This document shows, one piece after another, positions 7,747-15,690 of a stretch of 64,000 bases of DNA. The stretch's first letter is position 1; each line of letters begins with the position of its first letter. The notes below the pieces were generated by a model, which saw only the letters and a program-made list of their open reading frames with translations, did not search any database and was not told the DNA's origin. The position numbers were made by a program, and so were the translations under genes. Origin of the DNA: Lachnospiraceae bacterium. Its GTDB lineage: Bacteria > Bacillota > Clostridia > Lachnospirales > Lachnospiraceae. Where the stretch lies: NCBI GenBank assembly GCA_022768465.1, contig JALELZ010000007.1, positions 1 to 64,000 on the forward strand. The letters run 5' to 3'.

Positions 7747-7762
7747 GTTAGCGTATGCTAAC
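7747..7762. promoter_or_regulatory. Feo-type operator, perfect palindrome
   Basis: GTTAGCGTATGCTAAC is a 16-bp inverted repeat matching the GTTAG-N7-TAAC sites of the feo array. It lies 52 bp upstream of the DUF2325 start codon, so it is well placed to control the DUF2325-DUF3793-flavodoxin group. Binding protein unknown. Confidence 0.6.
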
Positions 7763-10836: not shown

Positions 10837-11046
10837 TTATTTTTTTACTTTGCCGCTGTTTGCCGCATGGCTCAGGCTGCAGCCGTGGCATCCCCCGGGA
10901 CAACAGCTGCAGCCTCCGCCGATTCCGCCTGCGGCCTTTATACGTTTCCTGGTCCTGATCTCCTTTATGATGATCCATACACATATAAGTACAACTACTT
11001 CGCATACTGCTATATTTGCAAGATTTTCAGATAACCATCCAAGCAT
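10837..11046 (-). CDS. FeoB-associated Cys-rich membrane protein
   Basis: One N-terminal membrane helix (residues ~8-28, IAVCEVVVLICVWIIIKEI), a basic loop, then the cysteine cluster CSCCPGGCHGCS (~46-57). This is the small Cys-rich protein typically encoded after feoB in Firmicutes; it is thought to help FeoB at the membrane, though its mechanism is not known. The start has an excellent site (AAGGAGGCGGCAATT before ATG). The AraC gene follows it by 1 bp. Confidence 0.88.
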   Translation of the reverse strand: MLGWLSENLANIAVCEVVVLICVWIIIKEIRTRKRIKAAGGIGGGCSCCPGGCHGCSLSHAANSGKVKK

Positions 11047-11195: not shown

Positions 11196-13325
11196 TTACG
11201 CTGCAGCTCTTACTGCAACCCTTTTCTTGTTAGGATCAGGTCTGAACAAAAGGTAAAGTACAAATGCAAGAAGAACTATTCCAACTACTGTTCCGACACC
11301 GAAGGCAAGCTCTCCGATAAGGAATCCGCCAACCTGATATACTATAAGCGCAACTACATATGCAAGAACATTCTGGAAAATGATCGTATACCAGAAATAC
11401 TTTCTATCTCCCATTTCCTTTGCAAGTGTTGATATAGCTGCAAGGCAAGGTGAATCGAACAAATTGAATAACAGGAATGAAATTGCTGCAATGTTTGACG
11501 GGAAGAATGCTGCAAACTGGTTATGCATATCTACCGCGCATTCTTCAACCTCTCCGAGTCCTGCAAGAACTCCCATTGTTGAAAGTATTCCTTCCTTGGC
11601 AACGAAGCCTGAGATCGAAGATGCCACTGCCTGCCATGTTCCAAAGCCAAGCGGTGCAAAAATCCATGCAATTGCTCCGCCGATAGTTGCAAGTAGACAA
11701 TTTTCAGTGTCTACAAGTCCGAATGCTCCATCCTGGAATCCGAAGCTTGCAAGGAACCACATTACTGCACAGCATACGAAGAGGATAGTTCCTGCCTTCT
11801 TAAGGAATGCCCAAACTCTCTCCCATACATGAAGCAGAACTCCCTTTGCTGATGGGATGTGGTACTGCGGAAGCTCCATAACAAACGGTGCCGGATCTCC
11901 TGCAAACATTGATGTCTTCTTCAAAATAATGCAGGCTATAATAATTATTGCAATTGATGCAAAGTAGATAAGCGGAGCAAACCACCAGATTCCGTCACCT
12001 AAAATGAATCCTGAAATAAGTGCAATTACCGGAAGCTTAGCACCGCAAGGCATGAAGGTTGTCGTCATCATTGTCATACGACGATCCTTTTCCTGCTCGA
12101 TAGTACGAGTTGCCATAATTCCCGGAACTCCGCAGCCTGTACCTATCATGAAGGAGATGAATGACTTTCCTGAAAGTCCGAACTTACGGAAGATCCTATC
12201 CATAATAAATGCAACTCGTGCCATGTATCCGCAATCCTCAAGAATTGAAAGGAACAGGAATACTATAGCCATCTGAGGAGCAAAGCCGACAGGTGCTCCT
12301 ATACCGCCTAAAATACCGTCAACTACCAGTGAGATGACCCAATCCGATGCACCTACATTTGTAAGGAAGGTTTCAGCTCCGCCCTGTATCCATTCTCCGA
12401 AAAGAACGTCGTTGGTCCAGTCCGTAACGACTGTTCCGATGGTGGATACAGCAATGTAGTATACGAAGGTCATGATAACTACAAAGATAGGAAGTGCAAG
12501 CCATCTGTTTGTAACTATCTGGTCTATCTTATCCGATGTAGAAAGCTTTCCTGCATTCTTTTTATTATAGCAATCCTTTATAATGCTTGTGATATATGAA
12601 TATCTCTCATTTGTAATGATGCTTTCAGAATCATCATCATGTGCTGTCTCGACTGCTTTAATTGCTGAGTCTGCCTTGACATGAAGTTTCCCGATAACCT
12701 TCTGATCACGCTCAAAAAGCTTTATTGCATACCATCTCTTCTGATCTCCGGAAACACTTGAAGGAAGCTTTTCTTCAATATCTGTAAGTGCAGCTTCAAC
12801 ATCAGACGCAAAAGTACGAGGCTGAGGGATTTTCTTATCCTTTGCAGCATTGATAGCTGCAAGAGCAACTTCGCTTACTCCTTCTCCCTTAAGGGCTGAA
12901 ATACCGACTACAGGGCATCCAAGCTCCTTTGAAAGAGCCTCCTTATTAATAACATCTCCGTTCTTATTGACAACGTCCATCATGTTAAGTGCAACGACTA
13001 CCGGAATTCCGAGCTCAAGCAGCTGAGTCGTAAGATAAAGGTTACGCTCAAGATTTGAACCATCAATAATATTGAGCACCGCATCAGGCTTTTCATCCAT
13101 AAGATAGTTTCTTGCAACCACTTCCTCAAGCGTGTACGGTGACAGTGAATAAATGCCAGGAAGGTCAGTTATAACAACATCTTCATGTTTTTTAAGCTTT
13201 CCTTCCTTCTTTTCTACCGTAACTCCCGGCCAGTTTCCTACATACTGGTTTGAGCCTGTAAGGGCATTGAACAGTGTGGTCTTTCCACAGTTCGGGTTAC
13301 CCGCAAGGGCAATTGTAATACTCAT
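11196..13325 (-). CDS. feoB: Ferrous iron transporter FeoB
   Basis: FeoB imports Fe(II) across the cytoplasmic membrane. Residues 1-~170 are a G-protein domain: GNPNCGKTT (9-17), DLPGIYSLSP for switch II, NMMD (G4) and a SALKG-type G5. After a helical linker come the Gate-type membrane core segments with GCGVPGIMATRTI and PCGAKLPVI, each containing conserved cysteines. Length 709 is normal. The ATG follows GGAAAAAAGG. Downstream genes are two small membrane proteins and an AraC regulator; upstream are two feoA genes. Confidence 0.97.
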   Translation of the reverse strand: MSITIALAGNPNCGKTTLFNALTGSNQYVGNWPGVTVEKKEGKLKKHEDVVITDLPGIYSLSPYTLEEVVARNYLMDEKPDAVLNIIDGSNLERNLYLTTQLLELGIPVVVALNMMDVVNKNGDVINKEALSKELGCPVVGISALKGEGVSEVALAAINAAKDKKIPQPRTFASDVEAALTDIEEKLPSSVSGDQKRWYAIKLFERDQKVIGKLHVKADSAIKAVETAHDDDSESIITNERYSYITSIIKDCYNKKNAGKLSTSDKIDQIVTNRWLALPIFVVIMTFVYYIAVSTIGTVVTDWTNDVLFGEWIQGGAETFLTNVGASDWVISLVVDGILGGIGAPVGFAPQMAIVFLFLSILEDCGYMARVAFIMDRIFRKFGLSGKSFISFMIGTGCGVPGIMATRTIEQEKDRRMTMMTTTFMPCGAKLPVIALISGFILGDGIWWFAPLIYFASIAIIIIACIILKKTSMFAGDPAPFVMELPQYHIPSAKGVLLHVWERVWAFLKKAGTILFVCCAVMWFLASFGFQDGAFGLVDTENCLLATIGGAIAWIFAPLGFGTWQAVASSISGFVAKEGILSTMGVLAGLGEVEECAVDMHNQFAAFFPSNIAAISFLLFNLFDSPCLAAISTLAKEMGDRKYFWYTIIFQNVLAYVVALIVYQVGGFLIGELAFGVGTVVGIVLLAFVLYLLFRPDPNKKRVAVRAAA

Positions 13326-13406
13326 CCTTTTTTCCTTCCTATCAAAACAGTTTTCTGAATTTATATTTCAAGATCCGACTTTTTTCGGATCGTTGTGACC
13401 GGATGA

Positions 13407-13631
13407 TCAGCCTTCGATAGCTATCATTTCCGCATCGTTCTTACGGATAGTTAGCTCGTATCCTCTTACGGTAACCTCGACAGGATCTCCGAGCGGTGCA
13501 ACCTTACGAATGTAAAGCTCTACTCCCTTTGTGATCCCCATATCCATTATTCTTCGCTTAATAGCTCCTTCTCCGTTTATCTTCGCAACCTTGACCGTTG
13601 TTCCGACATTTGCATCCTTCAGTGTTTTCAT
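13407..13631 (-). CDS. feoA: FeoA domain protein (second copy)
   Basis: A 74-residue SH3-like FeoA protein: GEGAIKRRIMDMGITKGVEL then GDPVEVTVRGYELTIRKNDAEMI, the full family pattern. FeoA binds FeoB and tunes its GTPase and transport. It sits 81 bp upstream of feoB. Having two single-domain FeoA proteins before FeoB is common in Clostridia. Confidence 0.95.
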   Translation of the reverse strand: MKTLKDANVGTTVKVAKINGEGAIKRRIMDMGITKGVELYIRKVAPLGDPVEVTVRGYELTIRKNDAEMIAIEG

Positions 13632-13687
13632 ACTGCTCTCCTTTATATCATCTTAATATACACTATCGTTTATATTTACCGTTCCTG

Positions 13688-13900
13688 TCAGACAAATATC
13701 TTTTGTGCCATTTCATTACTGAGCGCAACTCTGACTCCTTTTATGCTGACGATCAGATTTCCGTTGATGGATGAAACTATCTTTACCGAGCCTCCGGCAA
13801 CAAATCCCATATCTGCAAGATGTTGTCTGACCTCAGAGCCTCCGCCTATTCTTGTTATTACATGATCTGTGTCCTTATCTGCAAATGTTAATGGCATCAT
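13688..13900 (-). CDS. feoA: FeoA domain protein (first copy)
   Basis: A 70-residue FeoA protein with the pattern GGSEVRQHLADMGFVAGGSVKIV ... SIKGVRVALSNEMAQKI. It is the first gene of the feo operon; its ATG follows AAGGAGAAAC. It differs clearly from the second copy in sequence, so the two are not a recent duplication. The operator array starts 86 bp upstream. Confidence 0.94.
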   Translation of the reverse strand: MMPLTFADKDTDHVITRIGGGSEVRQHLADMGFVAGGSVKIVSSINGNLIVSIKGVRVALSNEMAQKIFV

Positions 13901-13983: not shown

Positions 13984-14011
13984 ATGTTAGCTTTAGGTAA
14001 CTGAATTTCAA
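13984..14011 (-). promoter_or_regulatory. Possible feo promoter overlapped by operator 1
   Basis: On the minus strand TTGAAA (14006-14011) and TAACAT (13984-13989) are spaced by 16 bp. The operator at 13986-14001 fills the spacer and enters the -10, so a bound repressor would block RNA polymerase. The -10 matches only four of six consensus bases. Confidence 0.4.
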
Positions 14012-14232
14012 AAAAATATATCGTCATTACTTTTAAACGCCGAATATATTGTTAGTCTCAGGTAACCGCTTTTCATTATTAAAGTTAGCTCTTGTTAACT
14101 TTTACTCGTAAATATTGTTAGCTTTAATTAACTTATCGAGTTAGTATTCATTATTATCAATGTTAACACTCAGCCATTCAAAGTTAGTTTACGCTAACTA
14201 CTGACACAAATAAAAAGTTAGGCTCTGCTAAC
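13986..14232. repeat. Array of six 16-bp operators, GTTAG-N7-TAAC, upstream of feo
   Basis: Six inverted-repeat sites start at 13986, 14051, 14084, 14117, 14183 and 14217. Each is exactly 16 bp with GTTAG at the left and TAAC at the right, while the central seven bases vary. Start-to-start distances are 65, 33, 33, 66 and 34 bp, so all sit on a ~33-bp grid with two slots lacking a good copy. The slot near 14152 holds a degenerate site ending in GTTAAC. A constant core with a free centre is the mark of a protein dimer site. A DtxR/MntR-like iron sensor is a reasonable guess, but the arm spacing differs from the classical DtxR box and no such gene is in the window. Confidence 0.8.
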
Positions 14233-14337
14233 TTTCAATAATTTACTACTATTTTTTTCGTTTGTAAATACCCAAATGGATTTTTTTCTCATTTTGGGGA
14301 TATTTTTTTATTTTTATACAGCATTCCGGGTAACCAT

Positions 14338-14437
14338 AAAAAAATAAGCCTACTTTATATCCAACATAGCTGCATTTGGTAAACCAATTAGGCTAATCAG
14401 CTTCAAAGAAGCTTTGATAGATAACGTAGACTTATTA
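14338..14437 (-). ncRNA. Candidate ~100-nt structured noncoding RNA
   Basis: On the minus strand an 11-bp stem (AATAAGTCTAC, 14426-14436, with GTAGGCTTATT, 14343-14353; one G-U pair) closes the whole element and runs into a seven-T tract, which makes it an intrinsic terminator. Inside are two hairpins: 14396-14418 (AGCTTC/GAAGCT) and 14367-14395 (TAGC/GCTA outside TTGG/CCAA). A consensus -10 TATAAT sits at 14444-14449, putting the start at about 14437, the first base of the closing stem. No reading frame fits. I do not recognise a known RNA family. It could also be a leader attenuator for the feo operon 440 nt further on. Confidence 0.55.
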
Positions 14438-14443
14438 GTTATA

Positions 14444-14452
14444 ATTATATCA
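14444..14452 (-). promoter_or_regulatory. Extended -10 promoter of the candidate RNA
   Basis: TGATATAAT on the minus strand: a perfect -10 TATAAT preceded by TG-N. The -35 region at 17 bp (CTGTAA) is poor, which extended -10 promoters tolerate. Confidence 0.45.
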
Positions 14453-14491: not shown

Positions 14492-14557
14492 ATGAGGTTA
14501 CTGTAGTTAAAGCTCATATAAGCTGACACACTGTCTCAGGTGTATCAATCACCTCAT
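14492..14557 (-). other. Structured 3' region of the amide hydrolase gene
   Basis: On the minus strand ATGAGGT (14551-14557) can pair with ACCTCAT (14492-14498), enclosing smaller self-complementary segments, with ACTTTTGGGTTTT after it. A competing pairing is AGGTG with CACCT (14538-14554). It may be the terminator of the hydrolase gene or part of a longer structured RNA. The remaining bases of the 13901-14574 gap hold only AT-rich sequence and a weak CCCAAA/TTTGGG hairpin at 14272-14299. Confidence 0.3.
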
Positions 14558-14574
14558 CCTATTATTTTTACAAC

Positions 14575-15690
14575 TTATTCAACACTTTCACCATTGCTCA
14601 CCTCATTGCTGTCAAGCTCATAGTGAATAACAGTACTCCAGTCTCTGCGCAGTACTGCATCAGCTGTCAACGCTGTATCATCATAGAGTATAGACCACTG
14701 AGTATTACTTGTCACGTCACCCTCCTTTGGCTCCTGCGAGGCTGCTTTAAGCGCAGTCCACGCCTCCCCACGGTCTATCGTCTCATTGTCTCCGAATATT
14801 TCCTCCATCGCATCATAACGTTCCCTGCCATGTCCGTATGGATCATTATGCTGATTCGGCAAAACAAGATCCTTATACATAATGAAGAAGTTTGTTACAG
14901 CTCTCGATGGTGTCACTATCATATCTCTAAGTCCGCTGTTACAGTCATATTCCACAACTCTGCTGTCATCATTTGCATCGGTTATGAAGAAATGATAATC
15001 TCTGCCGTTTGCCGCAAACATATCATAGCTCTCAAGCAGATCCACTGCCTCCTGTGTGCTTGCCGCACGATCAAGCACAAGTCTTATCGCCAACGAGGTG
15101 GCAATAACCGGTTTACCTGTATTCTGAACAGTCGGTTCACTGTCCAGTGTCAGAACCGCCATTGACACACCCTTTTCATTCATTCCGTCCAGACATATAA
15201 ATGGAGCTGTGAGACAAGCCATCTTCTTTGCCATACTTTCATCCGGAATGTCTGCGCCTATATTATCGAGTGCTGCAAATGCTACTGATTTATACCCGTC
15301 TTTCGGCGTACAATATATCATCAACGCGGAGGTATCATATTTGAAATCATAGTTTCGTCCCATTAAAGTGTTTCCATCGGGAGAAGTTACGCTGAATGCA
15401 CTGCAGCCAAAGCTTGGAACCTCTATATGCACTGGCAGAAGAGGCAGCGCCTCCGCTACTATCGCATCTATCATAGTCTGAGTATCGCTTATTCCGTGAT
15501 CTATAACATCATCTAAGCTATAGTCGTATTTGACATCCATTTTGTACACATTGTACTCATCATAATCGGTAAGTTTCTCTATACTTCCTATTGTTTTAAA
15601 CCTTGACGAATATATTGCCAAAAAAATTATAATAATCAGTGCTGCAACCGCTATCACAGCTAAAGCGATTCTCCTTACTATACTCTTCAT
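14575..15690 (-). CDS. Membrane-anchored linear amide C-N hydrolase (Ntn fold, choloylglycine hydrolase/C45-like)
   Basis: The N-terminal ~95 residues carry a signal anchor (residues 8-28, ALAVIAVAALIIIIFLAIY). The Ntn-hydrolase core then starts at FGCSAFSV (Cys96), with GRNYDF (111-116) and the later MNEKGVSMAVL. Ntn enzymes need the catalytic Cys at a free N-terminus, so the first 95 residues would have to be removed by self-cleavage before C96; in bile salt hydrolases only the initiator Met goes. The family cleaves amide bonds in bile salts, penicillin V, N-acyl amino acids or N-acyl homoserine lactones; I cannot choose among these. It appears to be a single-gene unit facing outward. Confidence 0.75.
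   Translation of the reverse strand: MKSIVRRIALAVIAVAALIIIIFLAIYSSRFKTIGSIEKLTDYDEYNVYKMDVKYDYSLDDVIDHGISDTQTMIDAIVAEALPLLPVHIEVPSFGCSAFSVTSPDGNTLMGRNYDFKYDTSALMIYCTPKDGYKSVAFAALDNIGADIPDESMAKKMACLTAPFICLDGMNEKGVSMAVLTLDSEPTVQNTGKPVIATSLAIRLVLDRAASTQEAVDLLESYDMFAANGRDYHFFITDANDDSRVVEYDCNSGLRDMIVTPSRAVTNFFIMYKDLVLPNQHNDPYGHGRERYDAMEEIFGDNETIDRGEAWTALKAASQEPKEGDVTSNTQWSILYDDTALTADAVLRRDWSTVIHYELDSNEVSNGESVE

What the first reader, a model, noticed from the sequence alone, without database searches (positions are those of the whole stretch)
14338..14437. Candidate novel structured RNA with precise promoter and terminator
An 11-bp closing stem brings the predicted first transcribed bases (14426-14436) together with the bases just before a seven-T tract (14343-14353). 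Two internal hairpins give a three-way-junction-like layout. A TG-extended TATAAT lies at the right distance to start transcription on the first base of the closing stem. The fit of promoter, stem and terminator is unlikely by chance, and no protein frame uses the region. I know no Rfam family matching it. Its place between the hydrolase and the feo array suggests an iron-linked sRNA or a far-upstream attenuator of feo.
Basis: partly seen in the sequence, partly recalled or inferred. Interest (0 to 1): 0.7.

Follow-up and report, generated by a model that had tools for sequence, protein, structure and literature searches.

The report
Long terminator hairpin before iron-transport genes
The stretch is a real, unusually long RNA hairpin ending in a run of U, most simply the stop signal of the hydrolase gene upstream that keeps its transcription out of the iron-uptake genes; a small RNA made from it is possible but unproven, and nothing found ties it to iron.

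Summary
The observation mostly holds: on the minus strand an 11-bp stem (14436-14426 with 14353-14343) closes a 94-nt element that runs into seven T, and TGnTATAAT ends 7 nt before it. The fold is one long imperfect hairpin (38 pairs, -30 kcal/mol), not a three-way junction. Rfam has no match. It beats shuffled sequence but is not singular in its genome: 388 kb held 160 intergenic T-tailed hairpins at -10 kcal/mol or better, and 11-pair stems beside T5 occur 9 times against 3.3 in shuffles. Perfect TATAAT precedes 6 of the 160; the TG-extended form only this one, about 0.15 expected. No credible homologue turned up in 25 genus, 397 family and 392 order genomes (overlapping samples), so covariation cannot be tested. 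feo has its own promoter 70 bp on, conserved in a congener, with six DtxR-like operators; the candidate has none. Best reading: a very long intrinsic terminator of the hydrolase transcript that insulates feo. A 3'-UTR small RNA is the main rival. Iron link and feo attenuator are not supported.

The parts
14343..14436 (-). 94-nt imperfect hairpin, 38 pairs, 3-nt loop; closing stem 14436-14426 / 14353-14343
14338..14344 (-). T7 tract at the 3' foot of the hairpin (terminator-like tail)
14444..14452 (-). TG-extended -10 (TGATATAAT), 7 nt before the hairpin; weak -35
14575..15690 (-). linear amide C-N hydrolase (CBAH/AAT family), whose stop codon lies 139 nt upstream of the hairpin; proposed owner of the terminator
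14505..14570 (-). degraded copy of an rplJ promoter region (82% over 66 nt to a related MAG, where it lies between this hydrolase and rplJ)
14240..14268 (-). feo promoter TTTACA-17-TAAATT, conserved in congener G012
13986..14232 (.). six DtxR-like operators GTTAG-N7-TAAC starting at 13986, 14051, 14084, 14117, 14183 and 14217 (steps of about 33 bp or twice that)
11196..13900 (-). feoA (13688-13900), feoA (13407-13631), feoB (11196-13325)

Best explanation
The element is an unusually long intrinsic (Rho-independent) terminator at the end of the hydrolase transcription unit. Shown: the predicted hairpin, the U tract at its foot, its position 139 nt after the hydrolase stop codon and about 70 bp before the feo -35. 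Inferred: as RNA polymerase moves on, the inner 27 pairs form first and the 11-bp base zips up last, right at the U tract, releasing the transcript. This keeps hydrolase read-through from entering the separately regulated feo operon. The extended -10 at its foot is either a fortuitous match in AT-rich DNA or a weak start that would give an RNA of about 95-100 nt ending at the same terminator.
For: T7 directly at the foot, most pairing probabilities near 1; the hairpin also forms by itself in the MFE of the whole 239-nt 3' UTR. All 5 G-U pairs suit the minus-strand RNA and none of the three 1x1 mismatches is an A-C that would suit the plus strand (read; the fold was chosen on the minus strand, which favours this count); the plus strand folds worse and has no T tract at its end. 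No other T-tailed hairpin of 60 nt or more at -10 or better, and no site of the simple terminator scan, is listed between the hydrolase stop and the feo promoter (shorter hairpins without a -10 were not printed, but the scan, meant for short ones, found none). Other long T-tailed hairpins of the genome lie a short way behind ORFs, e.g. L080:18778-18877 (66 nt) and L076:14230-14296 (43 nt). 11-pair stems beside T5 occur 9 times (one site counted on both strands) in 388 kb, against 3.3 +/- 1.4, maximum 8, in 24 shuffles, and 5 times against 0.8, maximum 2 of 16, in 140 kb of congener G012; these two counts are not limited to intergenic DNA. feo has its own conserved promoter downstream.
Against: The 3' UTR of 139 nt before the hairpin is long (my judgement). 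At 94 nt the hairpin exceeds the 59-nt limit that TransTermHP uses for canonical terminators (passage of PMC12207403). TGnTATAAT fits a start on the first base of the stem well: 17 such motifs in 106,688 intergenic strand positions give about 0.1% per hairpin. Congener G005 shows no clear excess of such hairpins (3 against 2.2 +/- 1.4). Several of the long hairpins listed lie kilobases from any ORF called on their strand, so they need not be terminators of genes. No transcript data.
Confidence: 0.6

Rival explanations
1. An independent small RNA of about 95-100 nt, started from the extended -10 inside the hydrolase 3' UTR and ended by the same hairpin; a lineage-specific 3'-UTR sRNA.
For: TGnTATAAT with a 7-nt spacer to the first base of the stem; the only TG-extended perfect hexamer among 971 intergenic positions 4-10 nt before 160 hairpins; perfect TATAAT is somewhat commoner at 4-10 nt (5 of 971) than at 11-120 nt (21 of 10,018) before all 160 hairpins, though not before the 88 long ones (1 of 524 against 12 of 5,929); no protein frame of 50 aa; better fold on the minus strand.
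Against: -35 poor, promoter not listed by the two-hexamer scan; perfect TATAAT also lies 4-10 nt before five other of the 160 hairpins, three of them 28-59 nt behind an ORF, and about 0.15 TG-extended ones are expected over all 160; no homologue, hence no covariation; the longest unpaired runs are 4 nt, the 3-nt loop and the tail, so no seed is exposed; no Hfq found in the genome.
Confidence: 0.3
2. Far-upstream attenuator or riboswitch of feo: transcription starts at 14436 and reads through into feo when a signal undoes the terminator.
For: Same strand and order as feo.
Against: feo has its own promoter at 14268-14240, conserved in G012, where no such hairpin precedes it (model search of L025); the operators lie behind that promoter; the structures within 2 kcal/mol of the 100-nt RNA all keep the hairpin (antitermination by more distant sequence was not tested).
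Confidence: 0.03
3. Relic palindrome of a mobile element (MITE-like) brought in with the rearrangement that put the hydrolase between prfB and feo.
For: The hydrolase and a degraded rplJ promoter lie here, while in G012 prfB and feo are neighbours and in a related MAG the hydrolase lies before rplJ; the element is itself an imperfect inverted repeat.
Against: No second copy in the genome, none credible in 24 congeners, none in phages or plasmids; no target-site duplication seen by eye; G-U pairs favour one strand.
Confidence: 0.07

Closest known systems
Intrinsic (Rho-independent) transcription terminators
   Same: Stable hairpin directly followed by a U tract, behind a gene, 3-nt loop.
   Different: 94 nt with 38 pairs (76 stem nt) and bulges; PMC12207403 gives median stem lengths of 20-28 nt for most of its species, 32-35 in Streptomyces and 33 in E. 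faecalis (passages).
3'-UTR bacterial sRNAs with their own promoter (kind recalled, e.g. MicL)
   Same: Promoter-like site inside a 3' UTR, sharing the gene's terminator.
   Different: No Hfq found, no exposed seed, no conservation found, no transcript evidence.
Iron-responsive sRNAs such as RyhB or FsrA (recalled)
   Same: Only closeness to feo.
   Different: No DtxR-like operator by the pattern used, no clear Fur box by eye; no match in Rfam at gathering.

Membership tests
Intrinsic terminator | Stable hairpin abutting a U tract | tested here: met
   (prediction)
Intrinsic terminator | Lies behind a gene on the same strand without another terminator between | tested here: met
   within the limits of those scans
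Intrinsic terminator | Stem-loop length up to 59 nt (TransTermHP criterion cited in PMC12207403) | tested here: not met
   94 nt; a program's limit, not a mechanistic requirement
Intrinsic terminator | Releases RNA polymerase in vitro or in vivo | not testable with these tools
   needs Term-seq or in vitro transcription
Independent sRNA | Promoter at the 5' end | tested here: inconclusive
   extended -10 present, -35 poor
Independent sRNA | Conserved sequence or compensatory changes among relatives | tested here: inconclusive
   no homologue found, so no alignment to test; a young RNA need not have any
Independent sRNA | Transcript of the predicted size | not testable with these tools
   needs RNA-seq or Northern
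Known Rfam family | Score at or above a gathering threshold | tested here: not met
Iron-regulated RNA (DtxR/Fur regulon) | Metalloregulator operator at its promoter | tested here: not met
   GTTA-N8-TAAC occurs in the window at six places within 13986-14232 and at 7747 only; Fur boxes judged by eye only

The most novel reading that the evidence does not exclude
A lineage-specific, long-hairpin small RNA of about 95 nt, made in a bacterium without a recognisable Hfq from a promoter within a hydrolase 3' UTR, newly born where a rearranged gene was placed between prfB and feo, and acting through its double-stranded stem (for instance as an RNase III or protein-binding substrate).
Probability: 0.2. 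Interest if true: 0.45.

Novelty: new member of a known kind. Interest (0 to 1): 0.2.

Why it matters
It shows that agreement of promoter, stem and T tract, striking against shuffled sequence, loses much of its weight against the hairpins of the same genome. If the long T-tailed hairpins of this genome prove to be working terminators, programs with a 59-nt limit would miss them. If the RNA is made on its own, it would be a young 3'-UTR sRNA.

Tried and rejected
Rfam at gathering and at E<=10: nothing credible. BLAST of 141 bases in 145 genomes: 114 have a match at E<=1, all but the element itself short; best E 8.3e-4 over 23 nt. Two congeners (G011, G010) share about 24-26 nt of the same part of the element; one match lies inside a coding frame with a kinase-like P-loop, the other upstream of a frame, and neither is a hairpin with a T tail, so I took both as chance. 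Covariance model from the single sequence (two identical rows, so weak): 25 genus genomes (besides itself, and its own opposite strand, only G021 and G020 at E 0.9 and 3.3 over 36 nt); 397 family genomes (only itself); 392 order genomes (besides itself G671 at E 0.095, 23.1 bits, which has no T tract at its foot). The samples overlap and G000 is in each; searches used stricter filters. A model search of 12 chosen loci of those held gave G671 again and L029 at E 0.96. Exact patterns in viral contigs: 0. Phages and plasmids: none. Three-way junction: 2.9 kcal/mol worse. A short TTG frame inside the element (18 codons read by eye) was put down to chance: no Shine-Dalgarno sequence seen. Target prediction was not run. 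Papers: the searches listed nothing evidently on this element; passages only were read of PMC12207403 and PMC5171806, the rest seen as listings.

Full report
What is there. Read on the minus strand, the region runs: hydrolase (stop at 14575), 139 nt of spacer, the 94-nt hairpin 14436-14343, T7 at 14344-14338, about 70 bp, the feo promoter and operators, then feoA, feoA and feoB. The fold differs from the description: it is one continuous imperfect hairpin of 38 pairs, with three 1x1 mismatches, two small bulges, a 2-by-4 internal loop above the closing stem and a 3-nt loop, at -30.2 kcal/mol. Forcing the hairpin AGCUUC-UUU-GAAGCU, as in a layout with two inner hairpins, gives -27.4 against -30.3. 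The plus strand folds too (-22.7, z -3.71), as an inverted repeat must.

Chance. Against dinucleotide shuffles the element is remarkable: z -4.67; stem of 11 plus T6 in 0.083 places per shuffled 64-kb window and in none of 60 windows with a -10; 21 of 3000 shuffles of the 674-bp intergenic region with stem plus T6, none with a -10. Against real DNA of the same genome it is less so. In 388 kb (the window plus three contigs, of 1.86 Mb) 93 of 10,570 AT-rich 100-nt windows (overlapping, both strands) reach -30. 160 intergenic hairpins with a T5 tract at the foot reach -10, of which 88 span 60 nt or more; 8 of those 88, the candidate being the last, reach -30, and 6 of the 8 are unbranched, two of them the two strands of one palindrome. 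Genes were taken as ORFs of 90 aa or more in 20-kb slices, so 'intergenic' is approximate. Eleven-pair stems with T5 occur 9 times, at 8 sites, against 3.3 +/- 1.4 in 24 locally shuffled copies, maximum 8. Eleven long hairpins compared with each other show no family resemblance beyond short weak matches and the two strands of one palindrome. The -10 was given a positional control: -10-like hexamers (5 of 6 or better) precede 23 of the 160 at 4-10 nt, perfect ones 6. Counting intergenic positions only, perfect TATAAT stands at 5 of 971 positions 4-10 nt before the foot, against 5 of 2426, 6 of 3015 and 10 of 4577 further upstream, so about twice the background; for the 88 long hairpins it is 1 of 524 against 12 of 5929. 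TG-extended: 1, this one; in all 17 in 106,688 intergenic strand positions, that is about 0.1% per hairpin and about 0.15 over the 160. So the promoter fit is suggestive, not compelling, and it was picked after the fact. The two-hexamer scan does not list it, since its -35 is poor; it lists others close by on both strands.

Relatives. The element is single-copy. Neither BLAST in 145 genomes (the two short congener matches in the same part were looked at and dropped) nor a covariance model in 25 genus, 397 family and 392 order genomes (overlapping samples, stricter filters in the last two) finds a credible relative. A model of one sequence is weak, so diverged relatives could be missed.

History of the place. 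In congener G012 prfB (recognised by eye) is followed directly by feo, without hydrolase or hairpin, and the block TATTTACAAA...TAGTAGTAAA...GTTAGC before feoA is shared with the window: this I read as feo's own promoter, TTTACA-17-TAAATT, with the first operator behind it. In L054, a named MAG whose hydrolase is 94% identical, the hydrolase is followed by the rplJ promoter and leader; the window keeps an 82% match to that promoter region at 14505-14570, with the hexamers damaged, while the window's own genome has an rplJ with an intact-looking promoter elsewhere. I infer that the hydrolase came to lie between prfB and feo together with a piece of the rplJ promoter. The hairpin lies between that relic and the feo promoter. 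Of 195 genomes searched, 4, own included, hold a hydrolase at E<=1e-60.

Function. A terminator of the hydrolase unit needs nothing beyond what is seen and gives the place a reason: feo carries six GTTAG-N7-TAAC operators at multiples of about 33 bp (7 sites in the window against 0.74 expected; 10 strand matches against 0.28), and DtxR and Fur family regulators are encoded (the DtxR match is reported with one TAA inside the stretch), so read-through from upstream would spoil its control. That the operators are bound by the DtxR-type regulator is inference from their likeness to DtxR-family boxes, recalled. The sRNA reading stays open, but the RNA offers hardly any unpaired seed, and no Hfq was found in the 96%-complete genome; Hfq is dispensable for many Gram-positive sRNAs (recalled), so this weighs little. 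The attenuator reading is hard to square with the feo promoter.

Verdict. Real hairpin, ordinary kind, uncommon length. Interest 0.2.

Noticed in passing
window 13986-14232: Six DtxR-like operators GTTAG-N7-TAAC upstream of feoA at steps of 65, 33, 33, 66 and 34 bp, i.e. phased at about three helical turns; a seventh at 7747-7762, 185 bp beyond the 3' end of the P-type-ATPase-like ORF. Congener G021 has a decayed-looking array before feoA too (by eye).
   Followed up: partly
window 14505-14570: Degraded copy of the rplJ promoter region behind the hydrolase, a trace of a rearrangement.
   Followed up: partly
L070:1096-1210, L080:18778-18877, L067:6155-6253, L068:4848-4966: Other very long imperfect hairpins (99-119 nt, 36-41 pairs, -24 to -59 kcal/mol) beside T tracts in the same genome, without common sequence.
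   Followed up: partly
window 14269-14310, plus strand: CCCAAATGG...CATTTTGGGG followed by T7 on the plus strand, a possible terminator against transcription leaving the feo promoter region the other way (by eye; the scan did not list it).
   Followed up: no
window 10837-11046: Small Cys/Gly-rich protein next to feoB without a Pfam match, perhaps a FeoB-associated Cys-rich protein (label recalled).
   Followed up: no
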